Shown: positions 16,070 to 56,672 of the stretch, in pieces
How the letters are laid out: each line of letters opens with the position of its first letter
Position numbering within the stretch: the first letter of the stretch is position 1
From: Polytrichum commune
Taxonomy: Eukaryota; Streptophyta; Polytrichopsida; Polytrichales; Polytrichaceae
DNA length: 64,000 nt
Direction of reading: 5' to 3'
Assembly (NCBI GenBank): GCA_950295325.1
Contig: OX485806.1
Location: 49,347,169 to 49,411,168, forward strand
Notes under the pieces: generated by a model
Told to the model about the DNA's origin: nothing
The model's input: only the letters and a program-made list of their open reading frames with translations
Databases searched by the model: none
Translations under genes and position numbers: made by a program

Positions 16070-16073
16070 TGTG

Positions 16074-23372: not shown

Positions 23373-23427
23373 GGCAAATATATAGGGCATGTAGGATTAC
23401 AGTGTACTACAATAAAGCTATATCAAA

Positions 23428-23790: not shown

Positions 23791-23800
23791 ACCTACTAGC

Positions 23801-24908: not shown

Positions 24909-25739
24909 ATGAACACTAGGTCGAGAGCGAGAGCAGATCGAGAAGTTAGAAGGAATATTGAAAAACAGAGGCGTATTGAGAGAAGGCAAAGGTTCGAATC
25001 ACGAGAGAGCATAGGGACGCCGTACAACTTGCGGACAACAATGGGTAGACGAGGGCTTAATTCTGCTAGGGGCACAGGTAGAGGTTCCAAAGGAGAAAAA
25101 ACGTTTGATGTCTCAACGGTAGCTCCCATCATTTTATTTCCTGTATTGGAGGAAGAGAACCAAGTTGACAAAGGGGGCAGTGAGGTGTTGATTATCTGCA
25201 AGCCTAATGCCATTTTTTTTATGTGTATTCACGGTAATTAGAATAGTTGACAAACATTAACTTCCATCGGCTCCTTTATATTGTATTTTATCTTTGGTGT
25301 GGGATTGTGAATTGGGTTTGGGTTGGGCATCTGGAACAACGACTTATGCAGACACAGCTTCAACCTGGGGCAGCCTCAAGTGCCTCCACATCAGATGAGA
25401 GTGAGGAGCAGGTTTGTAAAGATTGGACTCAATTGGTGATTTTTAGGGCTATTGGTGTAGGATTAGGTAGCTTTGCAAAGCTAACGCTGTCTCAGGCCAA
25501 CTTCATAGCTAATGAGCACAGGACATATACACTTGACACACCCTAGGAGAATTTGATTGCGGCGCTGATGTGGGTGATCTTCGAGAAGCCAGCATGGACA
25601 ATGAAGAGCAACACTTTGGGGAAGAGGTAGGTTGTCCCACCCATAAATAATTGAATGTAAATTTTTGGTGTGAATTGAAATATTATGGAACCTATACTCG
25701 GAACCTATATTCTGGAACCTATACTCGGCGAAGGTGAGG

Positions 25740-26640
25740 GTGAGGGTTGAGGGTTGAGCTTATGGGTGCGGGTGAACGGCTTTAGGGATGGCGGACCAAA
25801 GAACGGAATTTGACAACGTGGGGGCCGAGACTAAGGACCGGGTACTGTACTTCCATTGATTTGAGTCTCAGGGTGGGTGAGGGAAGAAGGGATTCTGGTA
25901 GGGGGTAGATGTGTCAAGTTTTGATTTTTCTAAAAATCTGAGACTGAAATGTAGGACTCATAAAAGGTGTTTTGGCCTCGACACACATTTTTTGGGGTCT
26001 AATATGTTAGTGAGTTTGATATGACTATGAGGTTGACTTGGGGTTGAGGGAATATGGTTCGGGGGTTAGGAGTTGATATGTGACTGAATTTGATTTGAGT
26101 CTCAGGGTGGGTGAAGGAAGAGGGGATTCTGGTAGGGGGTAGATGTGTCAAATTTTGAATTTTCTAAAAATCTGAGATTGAAATGTAGGACTCATAAAAG
26201 GTGTCTCGGCCCCGACACACATTTTTTGGGGTTTATTATGTTAGTGAGTTTGATATGACTATGAAGTTGACTTGGGGTTGAGGGAATCTGGTTCAGGGGT
26301 TAGGAGTTGATATGTGACTGAATTTGATTTGAGTCTCAGGGTGGGTGAGGGAAGAGGGGATTCTGGTAGTGGATAGATGTGTCAAGTTTTGATTTTTCTA
26401 AAAATCTGAAATTGAAATGTAGGACTCATATAAGGTGTCTCGGCCCCGACACACATTTTTTGGGGTTTAATATGTTAGTGAGTTTGATATGACTATGAGG
26501 TTGACTTGGGGTTGAGGGAATATGGTTCGTGGGTTAGGAGTTGATATGTGACTAAATTTGATTTGAGTCCAAGGGTGGCTGGGGGTTGAGGGAAATCTGG
26601 TAGGTGGTTAGGTGGTAGTGTTGATTTTCAATTGATCGAG
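25740..26640. repeat. ~240-bp minisatellite in intron 3 (copy 1)
   Basis: Three-plus units built from TTTGATTTGAGTCTCAGGGT, GGTGTCTCGGCCCCGACACA and TTGACTTGGGGTTGAGGGAA. The matching intron of copy 2 is also an array, but of a different consensus. Confidence 0.88.
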
Positions 26641-29600
26641 GTGAATATATGGATCTGCTAAAAGCGTTTATGTGTACTGCCGAGGAAGTGATTCTTATTT
26701 TCTTAAAAATAAAATTTCTAAATTGTAGGTACATGCTGCATCTTCGCCACCTTCTACACAAGTATCAGAAAGAATGCAGCCAGATTTGGAAATCCTTGAG
26801 GACGGGCTTGAGGGAGAGGAAGATATTCTTGGGGATGATGCTCAATTTATGGCTGATAAGGATGAGATTCGGACTCGGCAGAAACTTAACTCAGTGTCCA
26901 CGATCACAAGCTTGAGATTGCAACCCGTCAGTTTCTCGCGATTTTGTATTCCTTTGTGCAGAATGCTTGCAATGCCAATGGTAAGGACAACTCTATCATC
27001 CGATCTTGCTAAGCTCGAGCAAGAGTTTGTTCATGGATATAGGGAGGGCGCTTCAGTTTTTTATGTCACAACCACCAATGAAGACGGTAAGACACAAGAA
27101 GTGTTAGAAGCTGATAAAGCTTCTTGGGGTCCTATTGGAACGCCAAAAACGACGTTTTCAACACGTTCCTCCTATCAGATCCAAATTTGGCACACTTAAC
27201 AAATATAATGATTTTTGTGTGTGACGGAAACCATAGGCGTCAAGCATGGTTAAATCACATTGACAGACTTCACCGAACTGAGGAGTCTTGGCATTATTTG
27301 GTGGACTTGATTCTCCTTGAAATAAATGGGAAAGTTGGACTTGTTATGCAAATCATGCACAACATTAACAAGTAATACATTTTCTTTTCATATGCATTCT
27401 ATCATATTCATTTCGAGCAAATTTTCACTTATTTTCATTTCAATAATCTAATATCTTTCACTTGATTTTGATTTTAGACATACCGAGGACTCGCACGTGA
27501 AGACCAACATTGTCCATACCATGTTCAGGATTTAGAAATATGGTCTGATGTCAATTGATCAGTTTAGTGACCTTTTGAGTCATGCAGATTTCAAAAGATG
27601 TAAGAAGTCACAAAAATGACTTGGTATTCGTTGCCATTAAATGTGTTTACAAACTTCACATTTCAGGTGATTTGTTAGTTTGATTTCACATTTTTTTTAA
27701 GTCATGAATAATGATTTTCTATTGATCGCAACCGGCTAATTTCGTGAATCTTCAAATCTTGTTTTCATTTTCTTATGACATTTTGGTTTATGTATTCTTG
27801 TTCTCTCTTTGTGCAGCACGAAGTGGGTCTCGCTGCGGACGATGGTGTACGTCAGCTTGTGGAGCAAACAAAAGGAGAAGTCTCCCCTGCTGACAAGGCG
27901 GCTGCAATGAATGCCGCAATTGAGAAGAAAGTTGTGGCACTTCGCATCAAGATGGGAAAACTTGTTGTTGTGGCTAACCCGGAGCTTACCGACGGTTGGC
28001 TTTGTGAGGTAGGTACCCTACACCTTTGGCCATATCAATTTGTTCAGCTTATCCTTGAGAAGATGACTCAGGAACTCACAAACCCTCTGTCACACAGATC
28101 GAGCGACATTACACCCTAAACTCACTCTCACCGGAACTCAACTTAGAGAAGCTCCAGCTCATTGCAACTTCTAGGGCGTCTCCCGCATTCAAAATAAAAT
28201 GGCTAGAATACTTTAATTCATCTGCTTCCACTCGCGAGGCCCGCAGGCTACCTCCCAAGCCCATCAACGAAGAGAGATTGGCAAATTTCCTGGCTAAAGC
28301 AAGTTTTTGGGCAGGAGTAAGTCTACTGATTTCATGAATTTTCAATTATTTGAGTTTCTCGTTGGCATATCTTTTATCTACATCACATTCTAAATTTCAT
28401 TGACGCAATCGTGCATTTGCTATTTTGCTTATGCAATTCGTGCAGCTAATGCTTATTGTCTTGGTTACTAGATTTCTGAGCAGGCCAGTATTGTTTTTGA
28501 CGAGACCATGCATCAAGACCGACTTCCAATCAACATGAATCTTGCCAGTGAGCCAATGTTGTTGCCCGCGTATATCGAAGACTGTCGCATGAAGTTATAG
28601 GACCATGCGTTCAACACATATTTCAAAAGACACGATTCCTTCAAGAAAGGTGACGACTTTGTTGGATTTGACGGATCTGACCTAGTTGTCCGCAGAGTTC
28701 TTTTTAGGTACGTCTCAAATCTTGAAGTAATTCTCATTAATTTCAATAATTGTTTCAGTTGATATTATGTGACTTGCTACTTCAGGAATTCAAGAATTTA
28801 ATGTTATGTGCTATGTCGTAACCCAGGTACTTTAAGTACGAGCTTTTGGCGAAAGATGCTATTTCCAAAGAAGACCTTCCTGTATTCTTGACCACATGGC
28901 TTGATAGATCAAATTTAGCGTGCATGTTCTCAGCTCATCAACAATGCACGTGGACAACTTCTCACCTTGCCGGCGGTGCCTGGTATCTTGATTGCGCTGC
29001 AAGTTTTACGCCTGCTTTTGAGACTGAGCTCAGAAAGTCAAGGGAGGATGTAGGTGATTCTGGAATTGAAATGTTGGACTTACAGGCCATTGAAGATGAG
29101 AATGAGAGGGCAAAGGCAATGAAACGACGCATCGAAGAGGACCGAAAGAAAGCGCTGAGGGTCAAAGAGGCTGAGGAGAGAGCTGATCAAAAAGAGCGAG
29201 AGAAGCTACAAAAGTCACTAGAGAAGTCCACCAAGAAGGGCAAAAGGAAAATGAACCCCCCTCCAGAGCCAGAAGGTAAGAGTCCCGTTGCTCCTAGTCC
29301 AACATATGAATATGGCTCTCATGCTCCAACATTTTCTAGAGGAACAAAACGCGATTCCTCCTACGAGCAGTTGAATCAAATTCCTATTTTGACACCGGTG
29401 GAGGAGCTTGAGATCCAACTTGAAGAGCTCATTCTCAACTCCTCAATGGAGGACATTATTGGGGGTGACACGGGTGAATTCACCCCTTCCTACAACGAGT
29501 TGAAAAGATTCATGCTTAAGGTACTGCCCTTCCATAATGTTGTCATCACAGGTTGGGCTTCACATTTATGCACTTCAATATGGTCCACATTTATCATTAA

Positions 29601-29699
29601 GTAGTTACTGCCTTTCATATCTCAGCAATCGGAACCGAAACATGGATAGAGTACCTGTGATTCATATGTAGAGTAGCAAAACTACATGAGGGTACAAAA

Positions 29700-31180
29700 A
29701 TGTGTAATGAAATTTGAGTCCAAGTACAAGGTTTCGGACCTGATATTTAAGTTTCAGTCCAAGTAATCTGATTTGAGTTTAAGGATAAGTGTGGGTTTGG
29801 TAGAATCTGGTAGGGGGTAAGGGTGTCATTTTCGAATTCAGTTAGTAATCTGAAATTGAAATGTAGGTCTCAGGAAGACTGTGGGTTGAGGGAATCTGGT
29901 TCGGGGGTTAGGAGTTGATATTTGACTGATTATGATTTGAGTCTAAGGGTGGGTGAGGGAAGAGGGAAATCTGGTAGGGGGTAGAAGTGTCAAGTTTTGG
30001 TTTTTCTAGAAATTTGAAATTGAAATGTAGGACTCATAAAAGGTGTCTCGGCCCCGACACACTCTTTTTGGGGTCTAATATGTTAGTGAGTTTGCTATGA
30101 CTGTGAGCTTGACTGTGGGTTGAGGGAATCTAGTTCGGGAGTTAGGAGTTGATATGTGACTGAATTTGATTTGAGTCTAAGGGTGGCAGGGGGTTGAGGG
30201 AAATCTGGTAGGGGGTAGAAGTGTCAAGTTTTGATTTTTCTAAAAATCTGAAATTGAAATGTAGGATTCATATAAGGTGTCTCGGCCCCGATACACATTT
30301 TTTGGGGTCTAATATGTTAGTGAGTTTGATATGACTGTGGGTTGAGGGAATCTGGTTAGGGGGTTGGGAGTTGATATTTGACTGAATTTGATTTGAGTCT
30401 AAGGGTGGCTGGGGGTTGAGGAAAATCTGGTAGGGGGTATAAGTGTCATGTTTTGATTTTTCTAAAAATTTGAAATTAAAATGTAGGACTCATAAAAGGT
30501 GTCTCGGCCCCGACACACTCTTTTTGGGGTCTAATATGTTAGTGAGTTTGATATGACTATGAGGTTGACTTGGGGTTGAGGGAATCTAGTTCGGGGGTTA
30601 GGAGTTGATATGTGACTGAATTTGATTTGAGTCTAAGGGTGGCTGGGGGTTGAGGGAAATCTGGTAGGGGGTAGAAGTGTCAAGTTTTGATTTTTCTAGA
30701 AATTTGAAATTGAAATGTAGGACTCATAAAAGGTGTCTTGGCCCCGATACACATTTTTTGGGGTCTAACATGTTAGTGAGTTTGATATGACTGTGAGCTT
30801 GACTGTGGGTTGAGGGAATCTGGTTAGGAATTAGGAGTTGATATTTGACTGAATTTGATTTGAGTCTAAGGGTGGCTGGGGGTTGAGGAAAATCTGGTAG
30901 GGGATTAAGAGTTGATATTTTAACTGAATTTGATTTGAGTCTGAGGGTAGGTGGGGGTTTAGGGAATCTGGTAGGGGGTAGGGTGTTATTATTTAGTTTT
31001 GGTTTTAATCTGAAATTGAAATGTACGTCTCAGAAAGCTTGTCTCTTTTTGGCCTTTGATATTTGAGTGACTTTGATATGTCTGTGAGGGTATGTGGGGG
31101 TTGAGGGGAACCTTGTAGGGGGTTCGTTGTTTGATATTTGAGTGAATTTGATTTCAGTCTGGTAGGTGGTTAAGGGTTTT
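29700..31180. repeat. Long minisatellite in intron 9 (copy 1)
   Basis: About seven irregular units of the same sequence family as the intron-3 array (GGTGTCTCGGCCCCGACACA and GGGTGGCTGGGGGTTGAGG), spacing roughly 160-240 bp. It separates the coiled-coil exon from the methyltransferase exons. Confidence 0.88.
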
Positions 31181-32801
31181 CCTATTAAACTTGGTTTTTA
31201 ATTTTGAGTCAAGTATAAGGGTCCGAAACCTGGTTTTTAAGTTTGAGTCCAAGTTAGGAATCAGTCTCATTCCTATATTTCATTATGAATGTTTTTTTCG
31301 GTCCTTTGATTGTGCAGCACTCAAAAAACAAAGCCCGGCACTACAAGGGTTCTCCGGAGGACCATCCCTGTTTGGACTTGATTCTTGCAGATATACCGGA
31401 AGGTCTTCCTGTTCCTGGCATATTAGACCCACCGTCGTCCATTCCCGCTTGGAATCAAGAATCGAAAGAGTGGTTACAACCACTCTTTGACTTTGCCGAC
31501 GAACATCTGCACGACGACGGGGCAATTATTTTGTTTCACCCTTTTCGCATGAGTACGAAGTCCAATATTCTTGGATATTGCAAATCGTATGGTTTTGCAA
31601 TTCGGAAAGAGTGGTGGGGAATGAACCACCTTCATCTCACATCCCCAATAAATCCAGCATCAACTGTAAGATAAAGCTTATGTCTTCTTGTTGATCACCG
31701 CATTCAGTTTCAATTTAATCCTTGAGGTAGTTCTGAGTGTAGACCCACCTAAGTATTATACTCACGTTGTTGTGTTGTTTACTTTGTAAAGTAATATTGT
31801 TCTTTATGTCTGGTACATTGTAGACCATGAGGTTCGGTATTTCATTGGCGGTCAGGAGCGTGCCGGGTTCACCTGCATCGAAGTTTTCATTTCGCCATGT
31901 CCCTGCATTGGATCCTTATGGGGTGGATGTTGCACGGGATGATATTCTCCAGAACTTGGTCTCTCATGAGGACCAGCTAACTAATGGATCCACACCATGG
32001 CGAGGGCCTCGTGAAAAGTCCATGTTTCTAATGCAAATGCTAATTGAAGCATGTAGCTCCCCATGGGATATTATTCTAGACTGCACGGTAGCGACCGGTA
32101 TGTCTTTGTAATCTTCCATTTTAGTTGGTTAATCGTTAATATTGTTTTGGTCTACAAAATTCATAGTTGTTTTTGTACTAAGTATTTTTCAACTTCTTTA
32201 TTTGCAGGATCTTCCATTCATGCATGCCGCAATGTGCACCGTCACATTGTGGCATTAGACGCTGATGTTGATATTTTTGAGGCCTTACTTGCTCCATTGA
32301 TTATCTCTAGAGCAGCCTCTGAAGTCACTCTTGAAGACCGTGTCACCAGTTTAGAGGATCCTGAGGGTGAAGATATCCCCGTAGAGAGGATTGTGAAAAG
32401 ATCTCGGTTTACTAAGTGAGTAAGGTCCACAAATTCTCTTACCTCTGTTATGTTTTTTACTGTCATTTCTTATAAAGTTGAGTTATGAACATGGTACCAT
32501 TGGCATTTGCAGATGCGATAAATTGAGCTATCCTATTCACCGGCCTTTTTTTTGTGACCCTAAATTCTATCCCAGCCCTCCAAAGTCTTGGCAACTTCCT
32601 ACATATGCAAATGGTATTGCTAATCAACTAGCTGGAGGTTCTTATCAGACTTTTACATCTAAATATCATCCGGGAAGAGTTTTAGAGTTTTTGGATATAG
32701 AAGCTTTAGAATCTGATGGTCAGGCCTCCTCTGATGCAGATATTAGTGATTCTAGAATGTCTTCATCATCAGGTGATCACAGTGATTCGGATCTGATGTA
32801 A

Positions 32802-33815
32802 TAGCTTCATGTGAATGTCTGTGTACTATTTAATATACCATTTTTTCTTCCGTTGGTTTTTCAGTTTGTGCACTCATTCCGCATGGAATTCATTGTATGT
32901 GTATCACTTTCGGAGTTTTTGGGATTGCATATATGAAATTGCATATTTAAGTTAACTTTTGACTTCGTTTTTTTTTATATTGTTCAAAATATTTTCTAAC
33001 ACCACTTGGTTACTTGTTAATGTTTGAATTTATGATTAATTGGATTGTTCATCACTTAATTCCATAATCGGCCTATTAATTCATACCCTTCTTTTTTAAA
33101 TTTAAGGGTTTCCACTCTTCTTCTATTATCGTTTTCATACATTTTTTTAATGATTGCTTGCGATTTTAGGCGAATGCTGGTTTGAATAAATGACCCTAAA
33201 CCATTACTGTCACCTCATGAAACTTGGCATTCAAGTGTCTTTACTAATATCTCTGCATGAGTATGTTCAACAATGATATGAGGTGCACACCTATATTACA
33301 CAATGGTCTACAAGTTGATTAAAGTGTACACCAACGACACTAAACTCTAAACATAAAACCCCTAGGCCTTGTCCAAAGCGGCCATGCCAAGACCGAACAT
33401 GAAATCTAAGCCATTGGGCATGTCGAGACCCAAATTGAAACCAATAATTCGATTTCAAATTTATGGAGTCAGGTTGAATGTAACTAAACATGAAACCCAA
33501 ACATGGCATGCCTACATTCAACCTGAAACCATAAACTTGACCTCAAATCAAACAACAAACCCCAAGGCCAGCAGACCTCGGATCCGAGGCCTTTTGCAAA
33601 GTAGCCCCTCCACTTGAAATGCCGAGACCCACCCAGAAACCACCAACTTTATACACAATCAGAATTTAGGGGCTCAAGCCATGAGGCCTGGGATCCGAGG
33701 CGTTCTCCAAGTGGGACTTAGTCCACCTCAAATGACAACCTGTAACCATCCGAAACCCATTCCCAACCTACAAACCTTATAAGAAAAGGTGCAAGCAAAT
33801 ACAATATAGGTTCCT
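32802..33815. other. 3' flank of the methyltransferase gene, no further gene
   Basis: AT-rich, with CATGAAACC/CCGAGACC-like short repeats around 33.4-33.75 kb. No domain-like frame on either strand. Confidence 0.5.
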
Positions 33816-33992
33816 CCACCACGGATATAGGTTCTTTTTGGCAATAAATTTGGGAAATATGCTTGAAATATGTGCAAAATCCACGGTCATAAGGGTCCTA
33901 ACTTTCGAACAATAGAGTTTTAAATTAACATTTTCTGCTCACGAGATCTGCTCACCGCTTACCGCTCACATCGTAGCATTCCTGCTAGTGGT
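33816..33992. repeat. Conserved right terminus of element 1
   Basis: CCACGGATATAGG, CCACGGTCATAAGG and CTCACCGCTTACCGCTCA match, in order and opposite orientation, the outer end of element 2 (45728-45893). The outermost shared sequence is of the type GCTCAC....TAGC.TT.CC. This is the best candidate for a transposon end. The mate at the transposase side was not found in the window. Confidence 0.6.
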
Positions 33993-35270
33993 TGGAGAGA
34001 ACTCTTTCATGGAGAAGGGGTTTTCAAAAATAGTGGGAAGGAGAGGTTGAGAGGGATGAAGCCTCCCGTGCAAAGATCTGTTGTTGGATTGCGAGTGCAA
34101 ATGTTGGATTAGTGAAGGAGAGATGCCATGCAGGAGAGGGGCATCGCTTCCCTAGTGGGAGCTCACAACGAACTCCACAAACCATTCTTGAGACTCGAGG
34201 TCGTGCAAGGATGCAGTTGGAGGGAAGAAGCAAAGTCCCGGTAGCTAGGAAGGAGCAATGCTCACACCGAAAACTTCGGAGTGGACACCCAGGTAATCTA
34301 CCTCAGCACCCAATGCAGAGGGAGGATAAATGTAGCTGTTGTTCTCAGGGTGTTTGAATGTAGTCGGTTCGAGGCGGGGACTTAACCGTTCTAGTAACAA
34401 AGCTTTGGATTGAGGGGGATTCTTGTTGGGAGAAGTTGGAAATTCGCTCTTGTCAAGATTTGAGGTTCCTCGAGCAAGCTGGAGGAGTGTCTGCAGGTCG
34501 GTGAGGAATGGGCAGCAGGGTGAAGTCGACAACGTGGATGGTAGCCACTGAGTGGAGTGTCGATCCGGTTGACCCCGTGCCCTGTAATGAGAGGAGAATG
34601 CTGGCAACTTAGGCTGCTGATTGACCTGAATGGCCCTGCCGCTGCGAAGGTTCGAAGTGCGGAAATTTTCAACAGCAACAAAAAAACATTCTGCATGATA
34701 ATAGGTGATTGCACCAGGCGAGTACTGCACCAGTGTTACCTTGGCACAAACATTTTTCCGAGTATTTCGCAGGAGCCTGCTTCTTGATTCTGGAGGTTTC
34801 GGCAGCAGCAAATATATATTTAAAAGGCAACCTTCACCTGATCTTCGTTGAGGTGGAAGTACTTGAAGGCGGTAAGTACACCGGTGTTGTAGGAGGGAAA
34901 ATGATTAGAAAAGGGTGTGCAGGCTAAGTTGGGACCTTGCTGGATCAAAGGCAGGGCATTCTGTGAGCTTGGCAGTGAGCAGTGGAGGGTCAGACTTGAC
35001 AATGGGACTTGCTGGGTTGAAGGTCGGGGAGCCGAGATGAAGCAGAAGGCTAGGGGAACGAGCTGTAAGGGAAGGAAGTACAATGGACCAGCACAGGGGA
35101 CATCCCACGGAGTGTGAGATTAGCTAAGTCAAAGGACAGAGGATTAAGTACCAGTTAGTTGTGTGGCTGTGTGATTAGGGCTTAGGAGTGATTGAGTGGC
35201 AAACACAATTTAAAGTGTTGTCGAGGTCACCTTCAACCCTGAGCCTTAGATGGTGTAACTCGCTGCTGAA
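33993..35270. other. Unassigned sequence
   Basis: One 188-codon minus-strand frame (34811-34245) is open but shows no motif and biased composition. I do not call it a gene. Confidence 0.4.
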
Positions 35271-35763
35271 CCGGTGTGGGAACACGCGAACACCAAAATA
35301 TCCGGATTGGCATTTTTAAGTGCCTAATCCGGTTTTGTCCGGATGACCCTAGTATCGTCTAGGGATTCTGTGAAGTGTAGGAGGTTTAGAACTCTCCGTA
35401 CCCGCTTATCTTCTACTCCTTAGCTGAATTTCCGGAAACCCCGGTTTCCGAACTTTCGGTATTTTGGGCTCTCTTCTTCTTCCGGAGTTTGCCTTTCCGG
35501 ATTGCACCTTTAGGTCCTAATTATAATACTTACTCGCCCCTCTGATCCAGATTTACCCCTCTACGTTATACCCTCTAGAATAGGTGGTTTCTTCCTGTGA
35601 AGACGTCCCTTATAAGATTGGGATCTGGATATTCCCTCACAACCAATCCGGATTGGCCAAATCCGTCTTAGCATGTCACACAGGGAGTTCCGGATTATAT
35701 CTTAGGACCACAACGACCGGAGTATTCCGGATTCCAACCGGAGATCTGACTCGACGGGATAAG

Positions 35764-39345: not shown

Positions 39346-41261
39346 GTCCCACCAAAATTAGACCATTTTTGGTTTCCTTTTTTGTGAAGGTAGTTGCTTG
39401 CATACTAATATTGATTTCCTAGATTTGTAACACATTGCTTTAGTGCTCCTTTGAATTCTCAAGGAGTAATTGCCCTAAGTTTGCAAGGTTATGTTCCCCT
39501 AAATCCTAATGTCGAGGTTAAGTGTCATAGAGACATTCCATTCTTGTAAACCATATCTTTCATGGTTTGAATACTTAGCCCTGTTCCTATCTTCTCAAAT
39601 ATTCCAAGATTGCGTTAATAAAAGAGCATGTGGCTTTGATACATCTCAAGCATACTTCCTCACTAACGCAATTTGATTAGAAAGTATTTGTTTATGTAAA
39701 TTTGCGTATTTCAATCATTCATCAAGTATATGTTACTTTCATCACAGTCTTTAATCACTACTCAACATTTTACATTTGTATGTTTGAAATCACAATTGTC
39801 AATGTCTCTCTTATATTCTTTTCATGATATTCTTATCTATCTCCAATCCTTGATGATTTGAGATCTTAATTGAGTATGGTGATGTGGATCCTCTTGGTGT
39901 TTTTTCCTAGATGCCCGTTGATTATGCTCCTGTCGTCATTTGTTATTTAGAACGGTCCTTGATTCTGCCGGTGCTTGAGTATTCTTCTGTAAGTGTATTA
40001 TCCTACTTTTCTTCTTCCCAGTTTCATGCAATTTGTCGGAGCTCTATTTTTGTATTTTTCTTTTGATATTTGTGGAATCTTCTTCCTCTCTTGTGTTGAC
40101 TCCGATTTCCGGTCCTGTTGATGTTTTCTCTTTGGTGGCTTATGTTTCCCACTTATCACTTTAGCTTCTGTCTCAATTGCCAAAGTAACTGGTTCAAATA
40201 TTGATTCAGGTCTTATGTCCAATATTTGGTTCTAGCTCATTTCCATTTCCGAGTTAATCATGTCTTTCTGAGTTCTCCGAATCTCATGAATTGCTTAAGT
40301 GTAGGAGTGCAATTTCATAAACATTTTTTTTTTTCCGAAAAAAAATGTTGTAAGTGTTCAAATATTGTTTGAGTTTGAGTTTTGCAATTATCCTTAGCTC
40401 AAACTAAATGGCCTTAGGAATTACTCTTTTTTGCCCGATCCAATCGGCTCTGAAATAAACTCGTCTCAATGTCCGGAATTACCTTTTCAGGTTTTACTTT
40501 TCATTTCTATCTTTGTTTTGTTCGAGTGGTTTCCCACTTTCCTATCTTTCTAATTTCCAAGGCTTGAGTGGTTTCCCACGTTACTATCTTTCTAAACTCC
40601 AAGTTTTGAGTGGTTTCCCACGTTACCAAGCTCTTGTTGACACTTCACGTTAATTGTATCCGCGGCAAATGAAGTGTAATAAGGCCTCCTAGTGCCCTCT
40701 TATATATAGTCTTTCAAATCTACCAATTGTCTAATTTCAACAAATATTGGTCTCGGCTATAATTAGCATTGTGTGAGCCCAAAATGGTGCCTACATGTGT
40801 TCTTAAGTCTTTTGAGACCATTAGAAGTTATGTTTTAATGTTTTATTGATTATTCACAAAAATATAAAAAAGAGTGAAGCTTGAAGGAAGTTATGTTTAA
40901 GCATTAGGCTTGTGTGGAGTGGATTGATTAGAAGATTAGTAGTGTGAGGAAGCTCCTTAGTTGGTGAGCATAGTAGGTAGAGAACCAAGGATAGTTCCTT
41001 GAGTTAAATGTTTGAATTAGGATCTATGTTGTTCATTTGAAGGACAAAGGCTTAGAAGATAAGATGAGAGCCTACAAAGTAGGGGAGGATAACGAAGGCT
41101 TATCTTGAGCCTTGAGGGTGCTCACCTCCTCAAACGCAGTATATAAGCCCTCATTCTTCCCTCTCTCTTCCTCTTTCCTTCGTGCTCCTTGGCACCCAAC
41201 GTGTTATAAGTGTGGGTGTATAGGAAGCAAGATAGGAGCACGTGTGTGTGCATGGGTTTAA
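39346..41261. other. AT-rich gap without a gene
   Basis: No convincing frame. AGTATATAAGCCC at about 41138-41150 is TATA-like and lies about 110 bp before a solo LTR. A short three-fold GAGTGGTTTCCCAC repeat lies at about 40520-40622. Confidence 0.5.
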
Positions 41262-42234
41262 TGTCGCGCACCTCTCCATGAGGAGTGCCCGAAACACCAT
41301 GGGCACAAGGGGGACCCCGGAGTGACACCCGGGACTTGTGGCGCCGTTGGTGAGAGGGCCCAAGTGATCCTAGTGTGGGTGAGGTCCTCGGGCGTTGGGA
41401 ACGCCTCCCATCCACGAAGACTAGGAGGCACAAGGGTAAGGCCATGAGTTATGCGTAGCTCATGGCGTGGTGATTCTAGAAAGCTCAAGAACACCTCAAT
41501 CGGAGGTGTGAGCTAGGAGTTATGGCCATTTGAGTGGGGCGCTGTCCCGGGACAGCGCCCTGGTACAGCAGTGCCTGGGAGTGATTCCCGGGACTGCCAA
41601 GGTTCAAACAGGCATAACTTCCTCAAGACTTGCTCAAATGGAGCAAGTGAGGAGTCCATCGGCATCTACGTGAAGCGTAGATGAAGATAGAGTGGTTGGT
41701 TGTTATGATCAGACATCATACAAGGAAGTTATGATGGTCTGAAGCTGCTGGGGGGGTTCTAGGCCCAGCAGCTAAAGGAAAATGTCCACTTGGCCCCAAC
41801 TCTTGGTAGAGAGACAAGAGGTTGGTTGACGGTGGGTAGGGGCCCCGCGTGAAGTCCTAGAGGCTTATATGGGTGAGGTGGTGTGGCCTCACCCACCCGA
41901 GGCCGAACGGCAAGGCCTCCATGGGCATTGGCCCATTGTGAGGCCATATTTGCCTATATGGTTCGGGTTGTTGTAGTGTTGCTCCGGCAACGCGATGATC
42001 AACATGGAATTGGACTTCCATGGACGGAAGTCCACACCTAGGAATGGGTTACCGATTAAGGGGTGAGTCCCGAAAGCAAAGTAGGAGGGTTGGTTCCCTC
42101 CTATGAACTATAAGGTCCGGGGTAGGAGGAGCTAACCATTAGCATGGCGGAATGCGAATGGTTAGCGCTCGTAACCTTTGCTAAAAATTAAAAATTGGCA
42201 AGATTATCAAGGGGGCTTAGCAAGGGTTGCGACA
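41262..42234 (+). repeat. Solo LTR of the gypsy family, plus strand
   Basis: 973 bp, TGTCGC...GCGACA. Target duplication TTTAA at 41257-41261 and 42235-42239. It differs from the 3049 LTR by many substitutions and small indels, so it is an older insertion reduced by LTR-LTR recombination. Confidence 0.93.
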
Positions 42235-45900: not shown

Positions 45901-46192
45901 AGGGGTTAATTTCAGACTGCGAGGGTGTAATTATTATAATACAAAATAAGTAGTGCAATTTTTTAATTCTTCCATTATTCTTCCATTATTTATTTTTTTA
46001 GGATTTATTCTTCCATTCTTCTTCCAGTCTATTTTCTTATTTTTTGTAATTCTTAAAAATGTATTGATATTTTATATTTTTCAACTTTAATTTTTTGGTT
46101 TAGTTATTCCCGTTATACCCGCACTAAAAGGACACTGAACAATCAAATGCAAAAATATATTATTATGTAGGCAATAAGACACAAAATTCTAG

Positions 46193-49100
46193 CTAAGTCA
46201 TATAATCAAAATCACAATTATCAGATAATGCTACAAAGACTTTAGAATCTGTACTATCTGCATCTGAGGAGCCTTCATCCTCATACTCAATAGCTTCTAA
46301 ATCAACATACTCTATACCTCTTAGCATCAAATTCTTAAGTCTAAATGTACGATATGAACCTTCCGCTAATTCATTGGCAACGTCATTTGCGTATGAAGGG
46401 AGTTGCCAGGACTTTGGAGGACTTGGATAAAACGTAGGGTCACAGAAGAAAGGGCGGTGACTAGGATAGTTCATTGCTCCATATCTGCAAATTCCAAAAG
46501 TACCATGTTTAGGACTCGATATTAGATACAATGACGCTCAAAAGTAAAACAAATGTATGAGAGAATGTTCAACAAACTCACTTACTGAATCGAGACTTCT
46601 TCACAATTCTCGGGACCACAAGTACATCGCCCTCCGGGTCCTCACTAGTTGCCGTTGCTCCAGAAGTGACCTCATGAGCAACACTCGAACGAATCAAGGG
46701 TTTAAGCAAGGCATGGAAGATGGCCTCATCAGCCTCTAATGCCACGATGTGACGCTGGACGTTGCGGGACGCAGGGATGGAAAAACCTACAATAAAAAGA
46801 ATGACAATAAAATTAGTGTGCTCTCTGTGGAACTAAAAATAAATAGTTAAAAATGTGAGTTGGCAGATTGAATTAACATACCCGTAGCAGCAGTGCAGTC
46901 TAAAACAACATCCCCAGGAGAGGAAGAACTTTGAATTAACATCTGCATTAAAAGAGTAGACTTTTCTCTTGGACCTCGCCACGGCGTGGGTCCATTCATG
47001 AGCTGATCATCACGAGAGACGAGGTTCTGTAGAATATCATCTCTTGATACATCTACCCCGTGTCGGTCAAGAGCGGGGACAGGCTGAAATGAGAAATTGG
47101 AAGCAGGTTTGCCAGGCATGGTCCTCACTACCAATGTAATCCCGAAACGCATAGTCTGCCATGGTCCAGAATTAATGAGTTCAATATACAAAACAAAGTA
47201 GTTCAGAACTCCACATCAGCCAATGAGATTCCAAGACCTATGGATTGAGTTAGGGTCCAGCCATTGCAAGCAACACTTGTCAACTGAGAACAATGAACCA
47301 AAAATATGAGAAAACCATTATGTAGCATTCGTCTCAAACAATGTTTTAAAATTGTTAGAAAATAAATAGTAAATTAAATTAGAGAATTAACTTACAGTGA
47401 CATTCTGGTTAATCGGGGACGTCAGATGAAGGCGGTTCATACCCCACCACTCCTTCTGAACTTGAAAACCGAAACACTCGCAATATCCAAGAATCATGGC
47501 TTTTGTAGTCATTCGAAAAGGGTGAAATAAAATGATGGCCCCATCATCATGCAAATGGTTATCTGCAAAATCAAAGATTGGCTGAAGCCACTCGCGAGTT
47601 TTTTTATTCCAGGCAGGAATCGACGTTGGTGGATTGGAGATCCCTGGAACGGGCAAGCCCTGCGGGATATCAGCAAGTATCAAGTCCAAACAGGGCTGGA
47701 CACCGGTAGTCCCCTTATACAATCGAACTTTGCCAGTGGAATACTGCTCAGTTTACAAACACACCCAGAAATTAGTACATCTACATCTATTGGTCCATTT
47801 TTTGGCAATCAGGAACGAGTCCCACTACCCAAGTAGCTAATACACCTAATACCCCTCCCAGTAGCTATCTCGGCACGGAGACACCCAAATGAAGTTCAAT
47901 CTAACTGCCTCACATATGATTCAGACCCCTACATTCTAACTTACAAACATGCAAACTAAGCTTAATCAGACCATTTCTAACCATTTCAGACCACCTAAGA
48001 CCCCTAATTTATAACTCACAAACCTGCAAACTAAGCTTAATATGACAATTTCTAACCACCTAATACCCCTCCTAGTAGCTATCTCGGCACGGAGACACCC
48101 AAATGAAGTTCAATCTAACTGCCTCACATATGATTTAGACCCCTAATCTCTAACTCATAAACATGCAAACTAAGCTTAATATGACCAGTTCAGACCATTT
48201 CAGACCACCTAAGACCCCTAATTCATAACTCACAAACCTGCAAACTAAGCTTAATATCACCATCCCTAACCACCTAATACCCCTCCCAGTAGCTATGACG
48301 GCACCGAGACACCCAAATGAATTTCATTCTAACTGCCTCACATTTGATTCAGACCCCTACTTTCTAACTTACAAACCTGCAAACTAAGCTTAATCAGACC
48401 ATTTCTAACCACCTAATACCCCTCACCTAATAACTCATTTTACTACTTGAATTTCTGTATGGCTATTATGAACCATATCCCAACTGTCGCAACCTTTGCT
48501 AGTTTTCCTTCACTTAGCTTGACCGCCTTTCCAACCTAGCAAGTGCCACGAGCGCTAACCTGCACATCCCACGCACATGCATGGTTAGCTCCCAAAACCG
48601 CGGACTTCAAGCTCATGGCTAGGTCACCAAACCCTCCTACACATGCATTCGGGACTCTCCCCTTAGTAGGTAGCCAATGGCTAAGGTGGATTTCCATCCA
48701 TGGAAGTCCACTCTTGAGTTGATCATCGTGTTGCCAAAACAACACTACAACTACCCGGAGCACATTGCCAAGTATGCTCCGGGGGGGTCGGTCGGCTAAG
48801 CCGCCTCACCCATATAAGCCTCTAGGACTTTGGGCGGGGCCCCTACCCCACCATCAAGTATCCTTTTGTCTCTCTACAAGGGTTGGGGCCAAGTGGACAT
48901 TTTCCCTTAGCCACTGGGGCTAGAACCCCCCCAGCAGCTTCAGACCACCATAACTTCTACATATGATGTCTAATGCTATTAAGAAACCACTCTATCGTCA
49001 CCTACGCTTTGCAAAGATGCCGATGAACCCCTCACTTGCCTCATTCGGGCAAGTATTGAGGAAGTTATGGCTCTTCAAACCTTGGCAGTCCCGGGCACCA

Positions 49101-52100
49101 CTCCCAGGTCACTGCTGTCCCAGGGTGTTGTCCCGGGATAGCGCCCCACTCAAATGGCCATATCTCCTAGCTAGCACCTCCGATTGAGGTGTTCCTTAGC
49201 ATTCTAGAATTCCACCGCCATAAGCTACTCATAACTTATGGCCTTACCCTCATGACTCTTAGTCCCCGTGGGTGAGAGGTGTTCTCAACGCCTGGGGCCC
49301 TCACCCATGCTAAGAGTACTTGGGCCCTCTCACCAATGGCGCCACAAGTCCCGGGTGTCACTCCGGGGTCCCCCTTGTGCCCATGGTGTTGCGGGCACTC
49401 CTCATGGAGAGGTGCGCGACACCAACCATATACAAATCTTGTATAAGGTATGCATGCCTATAATGGACACTTCTAACTTCACGTGCACTTCTGGCTGCTG
49501 GATGGGATTAGAAATTGTCTCATCCAGTTAGCATTTGTGTATCATGAAGATTGTTGTTCCATGTGTTAAAATCAGAGCTGAGATGCAAAAATTATAAGAG
49601 GTAAAAAAGAAGATTCTTCTTTCGCTTAAAATGATCACGTCGCTTAAATTATAATATGAAAATAAAAATCGTTAATGTTGGCATAACAAATAAAAGAAAA
49701 AATACCTTAATCATGAATCTTTTTAAGTCCTTGTAATAAGAGGTATAGTCATCTGAGCTACCGCCAAGGACTTCCATCATGGAGGCATTGAGAATGAGCT
49801 CGTCAATCTGGCTTTCGTTCTCCTCTCCCAAATTAAAAACAGTACTCAACTGGTCGTATGAAGAATCCCGCTTTGTACCTCGGGAAAAAATAGGAGCTTG
49901 AGATCCAAAATCATTAGTCGGGCTTGGAGAAACAAGACTTCTACCTTCTGGCTCAGAATGGGGGTTCATCTTCTTTTTCCCCCTCATGCAAATCTTCTCC
50001 AATGACTTCTAAAGTTTTTCCATATCTTTCTGTGCCGCTTTCTCCTCTACTTCCTTTACTCTAAGCGCCTTCTTCCTATCCTCTTCAAGACGTCGCGAGA
50101 GGGCCTTTGCCCTCTCATGCTCGTCTTCTATGCCCTGTAAGTCAACCATCTCAACACCAGATTCTCCAATTGCCTCCCTTGACATCCTAAGTTCAGTTTC
50201 AAAAGAAGGAGTGAAACTAGGAGCACAGTCAAGGTACCAACCACCTCCTGTGAGATGTGAGGTTGACCATGTACGCTGTTGATTTGCTGAGAACATGCAC
50301 GTTGAGTTAGACCTGACCAGCCATGCAGAGAGAAATACGGGGAGATCTTCTTTTGTTATTGCTCCTTTTGCAAGGAGCTCGTACTTGAAATACCTGCGGG
50401 TAAGACACAACTCATCATTATATACCTTGCAATGGAAATAATTGTCATGTGAAAAACCAAAACACTATGCCAAATATAAGAGAGTACTAGTAGTTAAAGG
50501 AGAAAACGCACCGAAAGAGTACTCTTCGCACAATTAAGTCAGTCCCGTTAAATCCCACAAATTCGAGAGTTTTGTTAAAAGCCTTCTGCCCTCGGAAGAA
50601 GGTGGGAAACGTATTGTCCCATAATTTCATTCTACAGTCCTCGATGTATGCAGCCAAGGTCAAGGGCTCGCTGGGTATATCAAAGTTGATAGCCAGTCTG
50701 TCTTGGCGCAAAGTGTCTTCAAAGATAATGGAAGCCTGATCGGATATCTGTAAAAATAGAGTGAGCAAGGCCGAGAGCAAGAATGAGAACAAAACTTATT
50801 CATATATTGAAATCAGAGTGAGCAAGACCAAGAGAAAGGCCGAATTAATGTAAGTGCTCAAATCAGGTCACACATAACTAAAGGGTACATAGGGGGATAT
50901 GTACTCACTCCTTCCCAAAAAAATGCCTTGGATACGAATGCCTGCAATTTCTCCTCGTTGGTGGGCTTGGTTGGCAGTTTGCGGGCCTCACGGGTTGATG
51001 CAGAGGAATTGAAATATTCCAACCATTTGATTTTAGAAGCGGGTGATGCTTTTGCAATAGCGATCAACTGCAATTTCTCTAAGTTGAGCTCCGGTGTAAT
51101 TGAGTTAAGAGTATAGTGACGCGCAATCTGTGAACCATAGAGCAATATATTAGAATCATGGAGTTCATTGAATTACTTGAGGAATGAAAAATGGGTCTTA
51201 AAGTAGTGGGCATACCTCTCGAAGCCATCCATCTGTCAACTCTGGGTTTGCCACACAAACTAGTTTTGACATTTTCTTATGAAGTGCCTCGGCTCTCTTT
51301 GAAGCAGCTACCTTCATGGCAGCTGCTTTCTCAGCAGCACACACCTCTCCATCCGTTTGTTCAACAAGTTGACGAACACCCTCATCTGCAGCTTGTGCCA
51401 GTTCGTGCTGCAAAAGGATTACCTTAGTTAGTTTGTCATCAAGATGGTGAATTGGATCAAGAGCAGTATAATGTTGAAATAGATAACAAGAAGGTAAGAC
51501 GTATGCATATGAAATTTTGACATCCAGAGCTAGTGTAGAAACTATATCTCGGTCCCGAGATTCAACAATTGATATATGGCCAAAACAAAAAGTAACACAG
51601 GCGGTCTTTATACGTGAGCAGAGCAACTTAGTCTAATAACCCAAATTTCCCACTTCCAGCCAAACGGAAACAGAAAGAATAAAAATAAAATAGAGATCAT
51701 ACCTGGAATATGAAGTTCATAAAAACATGTAGATTTAATGAATACCACGTCTTCTTCCTATTTTGAGAATTCTTGCACCTTTTAATGTCCGCTGGAGTCA
51801 ATATGTCTTGGTACTGTTCGAGCGGCAGAAGTCCATATTTCTGCACCCTAAATAGAGTGTGAACTGTGTTGGTCTTGACGTGAGAGTCTTCAGTATGTCT
51901 ATAATCAACAATCATAGAGTAAAGATTAGCACATCATAATATTTGTAGATTCAAAGTAGTGTACATAGATGAAAACATTACATAATGAAAACTTACTTGT
52001 TGATGTTATGCATAACTTGCATAACAACATCAATTTTTCCCTTCGTGTCAAGTAGGATGCTATCCACCGAACAATGCCAAGCCTCTTCGGTTTTGTGAAG

Positions 52101-55100
52101 TCTTTGAATATGATTGAGCCAAGCCTGCCGCCTATGGTTCCCGTCACAAACAAAAAACATCAAATTCTTAAAATTTGCTAACTCCGGAATGGACTGAAGA
52201 AAGGAATTGAATTCTTCATTTTTGGCACTCCAACTGGGACCCCACGATGTCTTATGCGCTTCAGTCACCTCATGTGTTTTGCCTTCTTCATCCGTTATTG
52301 TGACATAAAATACTGAGGCACCCTCTCTATACCCATGGACAAACTCCTGCTCCAATTTAGCAAGATCACTTGAGAGAGTTGGCCTCACCATAGGCATGGC
52401 CAACATTCTGCACAAGGGAATATGGAACCTTGACGACCTCAGGGGTTGGACTCTCAGTCGAAAAATCGTGGCAACGGAATTAAGTTTCTGTCGAGTCCTA
52501 ATATCATCTTCATCACCTTCATATGGATCTCTATCTCCAAGCCCCTCTTCAACTTCATCTTGCCCCTCTTCAGAATTTTCCATAGAAACCTGAGAAACAC
52601 CAGGAACAATATCCTTTGCGTTGTTCTCAACTTGCAGGTTCGATACTTTCTATGTGTAAACAAGTTATACAGCGTATAACAATATTTCATTGAAAATCGG
52701 GTTGGCATTGCTAATATATCGCACAATGTATACCATACATGCAAACCAAGCTTAATATGACCATTTCAGACCACCTAAGACCCCTAATTTCTAACTCAGA
52801 AACTTGCAAACTAAGCTTAATATGACAATTTCTAACCACCTAAGACCCCTCCTTGCAGCTGTCTCAGGACCGAGACACCCAAATGAAGTTCTATCTAACT
52901 GCCTCACATATGATTCAGACCCCTACTTTCTAACTCACAAACATGCAAACTAAGCTTAATATGACCATTTCATACTACCTAAGACCCCTAATTTCTAACT
53001 CACAAACCTGCAAACTAAGCTTAATATGACAATTTCTAACCACCTAAGACCCCTCCTTGCAGCTGTCTCGGGACCGTGACACCCAAATGAGGTTCTATCT
53101 AACTGCCTCACATATGATTCAGACCCCTACTTTCTAACTCACAAACATGCAAACTAAGCTTAATATGACCATTTCAGACCACCTAAGACCCCTAATTTCT
53201 AACTCACAAACTTGCAAACTAAGCTTAATATGACAATTTCTAACCACCTAATACCCCTCCTTGCAGCTGTCTCGGTCTCGAGACACTCATACTCACAACT
53301 AGGAAATCATTTCAGACCTATCTATCCTCATATCAGAATACACTTTTTACACACAAATTTGTTCCAAAAAAGTGTCTCGGTCCCGAGACACTCATACTCA
53401 CAACTCAAAGAAAAAGAAAGCTGAAGAACGAAACGAAACGAAACGAACCGCACCGCCTCGCCTGGCCCGCGCCCGCTCTAGCTTCTTGTCCTTCTCCGTC
53501 TTTTTCTTTCTTTAAGGATGCCTGGTGGTTTTGAAGCAATGGTTATGGGTTCGCCTCTCCGCTCACACAGACTTCGCCGCCTACAGACTTCGCCGCTCAC
53601 ATAGGTTTCTCCGCTCACAAGTATCACAACTCACATGTATCACAACTAACATATTTCACAACTCAAAGAGGCCGGTCCCTCACAAATCTCACAGGTACTA
53701 CGACGACACAACAACTCTCTCACAAAAGTAACAACAAATTTAGGGTCCAGGTGCTTGCTTGTGAAACCAACAACGAAAATGGAACCTCCACTACTACGGA
53801 GTCAAAGCTGGTTTAGGGAAGCAAGGGGAGCCCTAAACCACAAGCCACTCTAACCCTAAAGGGCCTAAACCACAAGCCAACAAGGCATAGTCTCCAACTA
53901 TGCATAGTATTAAAATCCTTACCTAAAATATATATATTTGGTCGGCTGCCCGCCGTGAAATTTTTTCTCAATCGGCAATTTGCCGTGGATACTCAAGGGG
54001 AGGTTGCCGAAATGCCGGCATTTTATTTTTCTAATCGGCCCCTTTCCGTCAACCTTCATTTTTCTTCCGGAACCGCTGCCTAAACTTTCCAATTGCATTC
54101 GGAAATTCTCAAAATCAACCGGGTAGCTCGTAACTAACTGCCGGCACTACCCGTTCATTGCTCCTAGTAGCTATCTCGGCACCGAGACACCCAAATGAAG
54201 TTCAATCTAATTACCCCACATATGATTCAGACCCCTAATCTCTAACTCACAAACATGCAAACTAAGCTTAATGTGACCATTTCAGACCATTTCAGACCAC
54301 CTAAGACCCCTAATTTCTAACTCAGAAACATGCAAACTAAACTTAATATGACGATTTCTAACCACTTAATACCCCTCCTAGTACCTATCTTGGCACTGAG
54401 ACACCCAAATGAAGTTCAATATAACTGCCTTACATATGATTCAGACCCCTACTATCTAACTAAGTAACATGCAAACTAAGCTTAATCGGACCATTCCAGA
54501 CCATTTCAGACCACCTAAGACCCCTAATTTCTAACTCAAAAACATGCAAACTAAGCTTAATATGACCATTTCTAACCACCTAATACCCCTCCTTGCAGCT
54601 GTCTCGGGACCGAGACACCCAAATGAAGTTCAATCTAACTGCCCCACATATGATTCACACCCCTAATCTCTAACTCACAAACATGCAAACTAAGCTTAAT
54701 CAGACCATTTCTAACCACCTAATACCCCTCCTTGCAGCTGTCTCCGGACCGAGACACCCGAATAAAGTTAAATCTAACTGCCCCACATATGATTCACACC
54801 CCTAATCTCTAACTCAGAAACATGCAAACTAAGCTTAATCAGACCATTTCTAACCACCTAATACCCCTCCTTGCAGCTGTCTCGGGACCGAGACACCCAA
54901 ATGAAGTTCAATGTAACTGCCTCACATATGATTCAGACCCCTACTATCTAACTAAGTAACATGCAAACTAAGCTTAATATGACTATTTCGGACCATTTCA
55001 AACCACCTAAGACCCCTAATCTCTAACTCAGAAACATGCAAACTAAGCTTAATGAAACCATTTCAGACCACCTCATACCCCTCCCAGTAGCTATCTCGGG

Positions 55101-56672
55101 ACCGAGACACCCAAATGAAGTTCAATCTAACTGTCCCACATATGATTCAGACCCCTAATATCTAACTAAGTAACATGCAAAGTAAGCTTAATCGGACCAT
55201 TCCAGACCATTTCAGACCACCTAAGACCCCTAATCTCTAACTCAAAACCATCACTAACCACCTAATACCCCTCCCAGTAGCTATCTCGGGACCGAGACAC
55301 CCAAATGAAGTTCAATCTAACTGCCCCACATATGATTCAGACCCTACTATCTAACTAAGTAACATGCAAACTAAGCTTAATCGGACCATTCCAGACCATT
55401 TCAGACCACCTAAGACCCCTAATCTCTAACTCAGAAACATGCAAACTAAGCTTAATGAGACCATTTCAGACCACCTCATACCCCTCCCATTAGCTATCTC
55501 GGGATCGAGACACCCACATGAAGTTCAATCTAACTGCCCCACATTTGATTCAGACCCCTACTTTCTAAGTAAGAAACACGCATACTAAGCTTAATATGAC
55601 AATTTCAGACCATTTCATAACCCCTCCGAGTAGCTATCTCGGGACCGAGACACCCACATGAATTTCAATCTAACTGCCTCACATATGATTCAGACCCCTA
55701 AATTCTAACTTGGAAACATGCAAAGTAAGCTTACTTCGCCCATTTCAGACCACCGAATTGACTTGGATTCCTCAAATGTCCCCCTCGGCACCGATATGGA
55801 TAAACAAGCTCAGAAAGTCTCTCTCGGGTCTAATAGTACAATTTTAGGTCACACCTTCGATCTTCGAACCCTACGGGGTGTGGGAATGTGGGAAACCCTA
55901 CCTCTTCCCCGAAGTGCCTCTCCTCATTATCCATGCTCCCTTCACAAAGATCTACCACATGAGCATTGCGATCAAATTCTCCTAGGTTTAAATCAGCAAC
56001 CTCAACGTCCCCATCGAAATCTCCAAGGCTCTGTTAAGTGGATATGTCCTGTCCTCATTAGCTAAGAAGTTGGCCTAATAAATTGTTGGCATTTGAAATA
56101 AACATTACCCTAAACCCAAAATCCTAAAAGTCACCAATTGAAAACATTCTTCACAAACATGCTGCTCACTATGATCTGATGTTGAGGCACTCGAGGCTAC
56201 CCCAGGTTGAAGTTGTGTCTGCGTCATTCCCTGTTCCAGATGCCCAAGCCAAATCCTAGTTACATTCCATCACCAAAGATAAAAAAACTACATAAAGGGA
56301 AGTAAATGGGTCTCAATTGTTCTAACTATCCGTGAGAGTGGTTAACATTACGATTGCAAAGAAAATAATATCATTAGGAATGCAGATAAACAACACCTCA
56401 CTGCCTCCTTTGTCAACTTGGTTGTCTTCCTCTGATATAGGAAATAAAACGATGGGAGCTACCGCTGCGACATCAAACGTGTTTTCCCCTTTTGAACCTC
56501 TACCTGTACCCCTGGAAGAATTAACCCCTCTTCTACCCATTGTTGTCCGCAAGTTGTACGGCATTTCTAAGCTCTCTCTTGATTCTAACCTTTGCCTTCT
56601 CTCAATACGCCTCTGTTTTTCAATAGTCCTCCTAACTTCTTGATCTGCTCTCGCTCTCAACCTAGTGATCAT
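46193..56672 (-). CDS. ParB-like/DNA methyltransferase fusion gene, copy 2 (13 exons, one premature TAG)
   Basis: Exons in order: 56672-56397, 56218-56170, 55981-55902, 52649-51997, 51898-51703, 51407-51216, 51127-50909, 50747-50512, 50393-49706, 47743-47396, 47155-46882, 46786-46582, 46484-46193; 3,708 nt in phase, about 1,235 residues. Basic N-terminus (~1-90); ParB-like domain with DGNHRR at ~303; conserved helical middle (~350-630); coiled coil (~700-770); methyltransferase ~864-1140 with DLILADIP (~888), GAIILFHPF, and GDVVLDCTAATG then IVALEAD (~1061-1090). The order motif IV before motif I is that of beta-type N6A/N4C DNA methyltransferases. Motif IV is ADIP instead of D/N/S-P-P-Y/W. 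The only defect I find is TAG at 50009-50011 (Gln in copy 1). Predicted nuclear; target base unknown. Confidence 0.82.
47840..48480. repeat. Minisatellite in intron 9 (copy 2)
   Basis: Units combine GTAGCTATCTCGGCACGGAG, GCAAACTAAGCTTAATATGA and CACCTAATACCCCTCC, spaced about 190-210 bp. The consensus belongs to the copy-2 family, not that of copy 1. Confidence 0.88.
48485..49421 (-). repeat. Solo LTR of the gypsy family, minus strand, in intron 9
   Basis: 937 bp with target duplication CCAAC at 48480-48484 and 49422-49426. The most diverged of the full-length solo LTRs here. It sits between the minisatellite and the coiled-coil exon and so lengthens the intron without touching coding sequence. 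Confidence 0.92.
52740..55740. repeat. Long minisatellite in intron 3 (copy 2), with an interruption
   Basis: More than ten irregular units with GCAAACTAAGCTTAATATGA, CAGCTGTCTCGGGACCGAGA and CACATATGATTCAGACCCCT. From about 53400 to 54160 the array is interrupted by unrelated sequence containing a (GAAAC)n run, CCGCTCAC repeats and GC-rich DNA. Confidence 0.9.

What the first reader, a model, noticed from the sequence alone, without database searches (positions are those of the whole stretch)
24909..56672. Transposon-borne ParB-like/DNA methyltransferase fusion in a plant genome
Two diverged copies of a 13-exon gene encode a ParB-like domain (CDGNHRRQAW), coiled coils, and a permuted beta-type DNA amino-methyltransferase (DLILADIP, then LFHPF, then VLDCTAATG and IVALEAD). 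ParB-methylase fusions are familiar in bacterial and phage genomes. I know of no described plant transposon cargo of this kind. An element that methylates DNA (6mA or 4mC) could mark its own copies, counter host silencing, or guide integration. The domain reading is from motifs; the function is inference.
Basis: partly seen in the sequence, partly recalled or inferred. Interest (0 to 1): 0.92.

Follow-up and report, generated by a model that had tools for sequence, protein, structure and literature searches.

The report
Plant transposons' protein–palindrome self-recognition system
A large family of jumping genes in a plant, probably a moss, carries a gene for a ParB-like plus methyltransferase-fold protein, and most of the copies examined also carry palindromic DNA sites of a type peculiar to their sub-family, largely in that gene's introns, which suggests that the protein recognises its own element's DNA.

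Summary
In detail: copy 2 is a 13-exon gene for 1255 residues with one in-frame stop; copy 1 is broken. The methyltransferase (MTase) fold is supported by Pfam, CcrM/HpyAVI profile matches and a modest AlphaFold model. But motif IV is mostly D-x-P-E/D, not DPPY/F/W, so catalysis is doubtful. The ParB call rests on motifs only: no library matched and AlphaFold failed. ParB-MTase fusions in algal transposons are already in print (PMC12477816), so the fusion is a known kind. Beyond it: 28 of 33 copies examined carry palindromes whose type goes with the sub-family (GTGTCTCGGNNCCGAGACAC; GGTTTCGGNNCCGAAACC; TGCTCGGNNCCGAATG; others), largely in otherwise unrelated intron arrays. Site type follows the ParB-exon tree (7 changes against 17 shuffled). 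Genome-wide, the 16-base form of the window's site occurs 1310 times, its reversed control 0. A second window gene with a DGQH box sits among another palindrome (3737 against 0). The architecture parallels Arabidopsis VANC anti-silencing. I infer that the protein binds its own family's palindromes and marks or de-silences those copies. Binding, methylation and anti-silencing are untested.

The parts
46193..56672 (-). Copy 2 of the ParB-like/MTase gene, 13 exons (56672-56397, 56218-56159, 56030-55902, 52649-51997, 51898-51703, 51407-51216, 51127-50909, 50747-50512, 50393-49706, 47743-47396, 47155-46882, 46786-46582, 46484-46193); one in-frame stop in exon 9
51997..52649 (-). Exon 4: ParB-like box (CDGNHRRQAW)
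46582..47743 (-). Exons 10-12: permuted beta-type MTase-fold domain, motif IV DIPQ, motif I DCTAATG
24909..32801 (+). Copy 1 of the gene, decayed (ParB exon in two frames)
52734..55758 (.). Intron 3 arrays of copy 2; 7 exact TCTCGGNNCCGAGA sites
51547..51560 (.). Single exact site in intron 5, outside the listed tandem arrays
47843..48411 (.). Intron 9 array of copy 2 with decayed sites (one or more mismatches)
25800..26608 (.). Copy 1 intron array with imperfect sites GTGTCTCGGCCCCGACACAC
29744..31121 (.). Copy 1 intron 9 array, same imperfect site type
23427..23795 (.). 116-bp array beside copy 1's transposase-like gene, TATCGGGGCCGAGA sites
24026..24526 (-). Divergent small ORF beside copy 1
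57000..57476 (+). Divergent small ORF beside copy 2
21587..23155 (-). Transposase-like ORF divergent from copy 1 (no Pfam family at its cut-off; MATIRAL start near 23026)
58912..63924 (+). Transposase-like gene pieces divergent from copy 2 (no Pfam match; SWIM-like C-terminus read by eye)
10211..12688 (-). Second gene with a DGQH box (DGQHS), of a different family; palindromes in its intron and leader
827..17727 (.). 29 palindromes TTACGAACGNNCGTTCGTAA (up to 2 mismatches) around the second gene

Best explanation
These are large transposons whose accessory gene, transcribed away from the transposase-like gene, encodes a protein with a ParB-like N-terminal domain and a CcrM-like MTase-fold C-terminal domain. 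The protein most likely recognises, as a dimer, palindromic sites planted many times in the element's own introns and leader, and acts on the DNA or chromatin of copies that carry the same site type. Shown: gene structure, MTase fold, purifying selection, and the association of site type with ParB lineage. Inferred: that this protein binds the sites; that the ParB-like part sets specificity; and that the outcome is anti-silencing or self-marking of the element, as with VANC in Arabidopsis, perhaps by loading and spreading as bacterial ParB does from parS. Chemical methylation is the least certain step, because motif IV is non-canonical.
For: Sites exceed chance: 22 (one mismatch allowed) against 0.04 expected in the window; 14 of 23 segments hold 5-23 exact copies of one palindrome against a shuffle maximum of 1-2; 1310 exact genomic sites against 0 for the reversed control. 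Site type differs between sub-families; no exact cross-type match was seen in 33 copies, apart from mixing of the related A and Ah types in 5 loci. Labels on the ParB-exon tree need 7 changes (least possible 6), shuffled mean 17, 0 of 200 as low. Outside a 28-bp window round the site, the 15 pairs of six A-type array units share words of only 8-12 nt, against 6-14 in shuffles, so the site rather than the array is what persists. In types A and B both halves carry the same letters in the exact sites. In copy 2 all 8 exact sites are intronic; exons are 3768 of 10480 nt. In L017 and L018 most exons from 4 to 8 are copy-2-like and exons 10-12 (13 in L017) copy-1-like, yet intron 9 holds exact A-type sites. 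VANC targets are likewise tandem-repeated motifs in introns and upstream regions that differ between related elements (PMC5735166, abstract and section 9).
Against: No binding, expression or methylation data. The ParB assignment has no profile or structural support. 5 of 33 copies showed no site (L019-021, L037, L039; 10 or 4.6 kb read). Types Ah and C have unlike halves, so they are imperfect palindromes; copy 1 is one of them, and 9 of 23 segments held at most 2 exact palindromes of one kind. The site is clearly the best-kept stretch in only 3 of 18 arrays (L016, L026, L030), although the pooled mismatch rate is about half (69/2351 against 1539/28078). Near-copies cluster on any tree, and many inner branches are weak. 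Of the first 50 genomic sites listed, 13 lie in a cluster without a listed ParB exon and 1 is alone. In L017 exon 7 is copy-1-like, and intron 9 of both L017 and L018 also holds one non-A site; the two may be one event, and linkage also explains them.
Confidence: 0.55

Rival explanations
1. Active self-methylation: the protein writes 6mA or 4mC on the element.
For: MTase fold and aspartate-led motif I kept; dN/dS 0.09-0.36 on MTase exon 10.
Against: Motif IV is D-led (D-x-P-E/D/K) in 34, Q-led in 9, N-led in 1 and E-led in 1 of the 45 relatives (of 92) where my pattern found it; none has DPP plus an aromatic, and one has an aromatic at all (QFPY). The first glycine of motif I is A, S or T in several families.
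Confidence: 0.3
2. The palindromes are transposase or replication sites, and the accessory protein has another job.
For: A transposase-like gene lies in the same element; arrays also occur in the leader.
Against: In copy 2 the exact sites sit inside introns of the accessory gene; no element ends were found, so this is not excluded.
Confidence: 0.25
3. The palindromes are passengers of satellite-like intron arrays, with no function.
For: They lie in tandem arrays; in most arrays the site is not clearly more conserved than the rest of the unit.
Against: Unrelated arrays of different period carry the same site; an isolated site exists (51547); site type follows the ParB tree; reversed-control pattern 0.
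Confidence: 0.1
4. Host silencing proteins recognise the CG-rich palindromes.
For: Type A, B and C cores contain CGG and CCG.
Against: Sites differ by transposon lineage inside one host genome, which favours an element-encoded partner.
Confidence: 0.08

Closest known systems
ParB-like/DNA-MTase accessory protein of Sola1-1_Ec32 in Ectocarpus, with green and red algal reports cited there (PMC12477816; abstract, passages and part of the reference list seen)
   Same: ParB-like plus N4/N6 MTase domains in one protein, giant DNA transposon, strand opposite to the transposase; self-modification is proposed there too.
   Different: That paper's main text contains no 'palindrom'; its protein was not compared with this one by sequence here. 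Iyer 2011 and Petroll 2025, cited there, are not held and were not read.
VANC proteins of Arabidopsis VANDAL elements (PMC5735166 abstract and section 9; PMC10398659 passages)
   Same: Element-encoded accessory protein; target motifs in tandem repeats in introns and upstream regions; targets diverge between related elements.
   Different: No DUF1985 or DUF287 match here; targets here are long palindromes rather than YAGTATTAY; the protein has an MTase fold.
Bacterial ParB-parS (recalled, no call)
   Same: Box resembling ParB's GERR box; long palindromic sites in clusters.
   Different: No profile or fold support; no ParA noticed (not searched for); CTP binding untested.
CcrM / M1.HpyAVI / MboIIA beta-class MTases
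   Same: Fold and permuted motif order.
   Different: Motif IV not DPPY.

Membership tests
Beta-class amino-MTase (PF01555) | Pfam match above curated cut-off | tested here: met
   Whole copy 2 protein 29.4 bits; domains of copy 2 34.4 and L022 37.4, the other 3 of 5 scanned below it, 22.1-25.3; cut-off 26.7
Beta-class amino-MTase (PF01555) | Permuted order, IV before X-I | tested here: met
   Profile positions 15-232 align to CcrM 30-253
Beta-class amino-MTase (PF01555) | Catalytic motif IV (D/N/S)PP(Y/F/W) | tested here: not met
   0 of the 45 of 92 relatives in which it was found; so filed as an MTase-fold relative, not as an active MTase
Beta-class amino-MTase (PF01555) | SAM motif I DxFxGxG | tested here: inconclusive
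   D and last G kept; first G varies
ParB/Srx-like | Profile match (Pfam, PHROGs, PDB sequences) | tested here: inconclusive
   No match
ParB/Srx-like | Fold | tested here: inconclusive
   AlphaFold pLDDT 41.4
ParB/Srx-like | (D/E)GNHR box conserved across sub-families | tested here: met
   G, N, H invariant in 15 of 15 rows; R nearly so
ParB/Srx-like | CTP binding and clamp loading | not testable with these tools
   needs biochemistry
VANC | DUF1985/DUF287 domains | tested here: not met
   Pfam scan of the whole spliced copy 2 protein lists only N6_N4_Mtase; works-like claim only
VANC | Lineage-specific target motifs in tandem repeats of own noncoding DNA | tested here: met
   (motifs only; binding untested)
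VANC | Loss of DNA methylation on expression | not testable with these tools
   needs plants and bisulfite sequencing

The most novel reading that the evidence does not exclude
Plant transposons run a parS-ParB-like self-recognition system: an element-encoded ParB-like clamp loads at lineage-specific palindromes in the element's introns, spreads, and uses a repurposed MTase-fold domain to block or reverse host silencing. It would have arisen independently of VANC, and in at least two unrelated element families of one genome (the second with TTACGAACGNNCGTTCGTAA).
Probability: 0.3. Interest if true: 0.95.

Novelty: new variant of a known kind. Interest (0 to 1): 0.8.

Why it matters
VANC is the only element-encoded, sequence-specific anti-silencing system that I know of with lineage-specific tandem targets (recall). 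A second, unrelated protein with the same target logic, in over a thousand natural sites and several specificities, would make protein-site coevolution of selfish DNA directly testable. It would give ParB-MTase accessory proteins of algae and plants a concrete target, and could supply long-palindrome DNA binders for epigenome editing.

Tried and rejected
Full-length search of copy 2 against the protein database: 7994 candidates scored, nothing at E<=1; domain profiles then found Ceratodon purpureus KC19_5G032000 and many unnamed, mostly short frames. ParB exon AlphaFold: useless. Viral contigs: 35 pattern matches, no relative. Second gene against the ParB and MTase profiles: no significant match, hhalign probability 3.5 and 0.1, so I do not call it a ParB-MTase gene; only the DG(N/Q)H box aligns. 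Element termini: not found. Rfam: none. The transposase superfamily was not settled: no Pfam family reached its cut-off in these ORFs. Papers: I saw the listings of searches, and parts of three papers; no listed title or abstract start describes palindromic sites beside such genes. The library lacks most subscription papers.

Full report
WHAT IS THERE. The window lies in a 408-Mb unnamed eukaryotic genome, G000:C4:49347169-49411168. Two inverted, diverged copies of one gene align exon by exon. Copy 2 splices into 13 exons with 12 GT-AG introns (borders chosen by me to keep the frame), giving 1255 residues with one stop in exon 9. Copy 1 is decayed. A small ORF and a transposase-like gene run the other way from the same leader in both copies. 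Of 6 fetched loci with a transposase-like hit, 4 (L013, L023, L033, L038) fit that divergent layout and 2 (L014, L027) do not. The ParB exon scored at 150 places, from 1221 candidates, on all seven large contigs. dN/dS was 0.05-0.36 for the ParB exon and 0.09-0.36 for MTase exon 10 in the pairs where dS was computable. A near relative of the MTase part is annotated in the moss Ceratodon purpureus (P0001, 66% identity over 70% of the query); that the host is a moss is inference.

THE SITES. TCTCGGNNCCGAGA (one mismatch allowed) occurs 22 times in the window, all between 23608 and 55650, against 0.04 expected. I fetched 31 loci, L009-L039, chosen by hand for spread of identity from the 150 listed places, 10 kb or about 4.6 kb each. 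Of the 33 copies (31 plus two in the window) I labelled 15 type A (GTGTCTCGGNNCCGAGACAC), 3 Ah (one half-site TGTCGG), 4 B (TTTCGG or GTTCGG halves), 4 C (GCTCGG with ATTCGG halves), 1 D (TGCGTTAACGCA and TGGGTCGANCGACCCA), 1 E (GGGTGYCG halves) and 5 none in the part read. L009 was labelled A on 2 exact sites. Types A, B and D are true palindromes; Ah and C have unlike halves. Between A/Ah, B, C, D, E and the second gene's type F no exact cross-type match was seen; A and Ah mix in 5 loci. On the ParB-exon tree all seven labels need 7 changes, the least being 6; shuffled mean 17, 0 of 200 as low. Many inner branches are weak, some branches are long, and near-copies inflate such tests.

WHY THE SITE AND NOT THE ARRAY. 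Array periods differ (106 to 396 bp among the 23 units found). I compared 15 of those units, 105 pairs, outside a 28-bp window round the site: only one pair (copy 1 with L024, the same array) shares a word longer than 12 nt. Within arrays the pooled mismatch rate is 69/2351 in the site and 1539/28078 elsewhere, but in only 3 of 18 arrays is the site clearly the best-kept stretch. Genome-wide, TGTCTCGGNNCCGAGACA has 1310 exact places and its reversed control none. Of the first 50 listed, 36 lie within 10 kb of a ParB exon, 13 in one cluster at C1:468.6-471.9 kb without one, and 1 alone (counted by eye).

A SECOND CASE. The gene at 12688-10211 (-) has a DGQHS box (weak matches only: GmrSD_N 0.063, DGQHR 0.58). 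It scored at 139 places (1055 candidates), 85-100% identical, many with a 511-residue open frame. TTACGAACGNNCGTTCGTAA occurs 29 times around it in the window with up to 2 mismatches and 3737 times exactly in the genome, reversed control 0. Of the first 100 listed, 65 lie within 10 kb of an exon, 31 in one cluster without, and 4 scattered (counted by eye). It is not shown to be related to the ParB-MTase gene.

MECHANISM. The anatomy matches VANC of VANDAL elements: targets in tandem repeats in introns of accessory genes and upstream of the transposase, diverging between relatives (PMC5735166 section 9). In L017 and L018 most exons from 4 to 8 are copy-2-like (exon 7 of L017 is not; exon 9 of L018 is even) and the later exons found are copy-1-like, yet intron 9 holds exact type A sites, 1 in L017 and 2 in L018, beside one non-A site each. 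Site type thus goes with the ParB side; linkage is an alternative. I infer self-recognition by the ParB-like part and an effect on the element's own chromatin.

PRIOR ART. The fusion in transposons is in print (PMC12477816, passages). I found no report of the palindromes in the listings of searches, which cover open-licence papers only.

Noticed in passing
10211-12688 (-) and 827-17727: Multi-copy gene family, 85-100% alike at the 139 places scored, with its own 20-bp palindrome (3737 exact genomic sites); possibly paired with the DUF7869 gene at 19558-21177 (+), a search that did not complete.
   Followed up: partly
3035-4000, 9114-10061, 41248-42193, 57868-58878: About 1-kb dispersed repeat, four direct copies plus an inverted one at 48683-49434 inside intron 9 of copy 2; an exact palindrome GGGCGCTGTCCCGGGACAGCGCCC is counted 4 times in the window.
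   Followed up: no
L017, L018; window copies 1 and 2: Mosaic elements: copies 1 and 2 are about 88% alike in the leader and exon 1 region, yet exon 10 has dS near 1.8, so sub-families seem to recombine.
   Followed up: partly
L023: Two different palindromes in two different arrays of one element.
   Followed up: no
G000:C1:468609-471945 and G000:C1:640865-646098: Dense clusters of type-A and type-F sites without a listed ParB-like or DGQH exon nearby.
   Followed up: no
5681-6004: Retroelement fragment (RT_RNaseH_2, 1.8e-5, below Pfam's cut-off).
   Followed up: no
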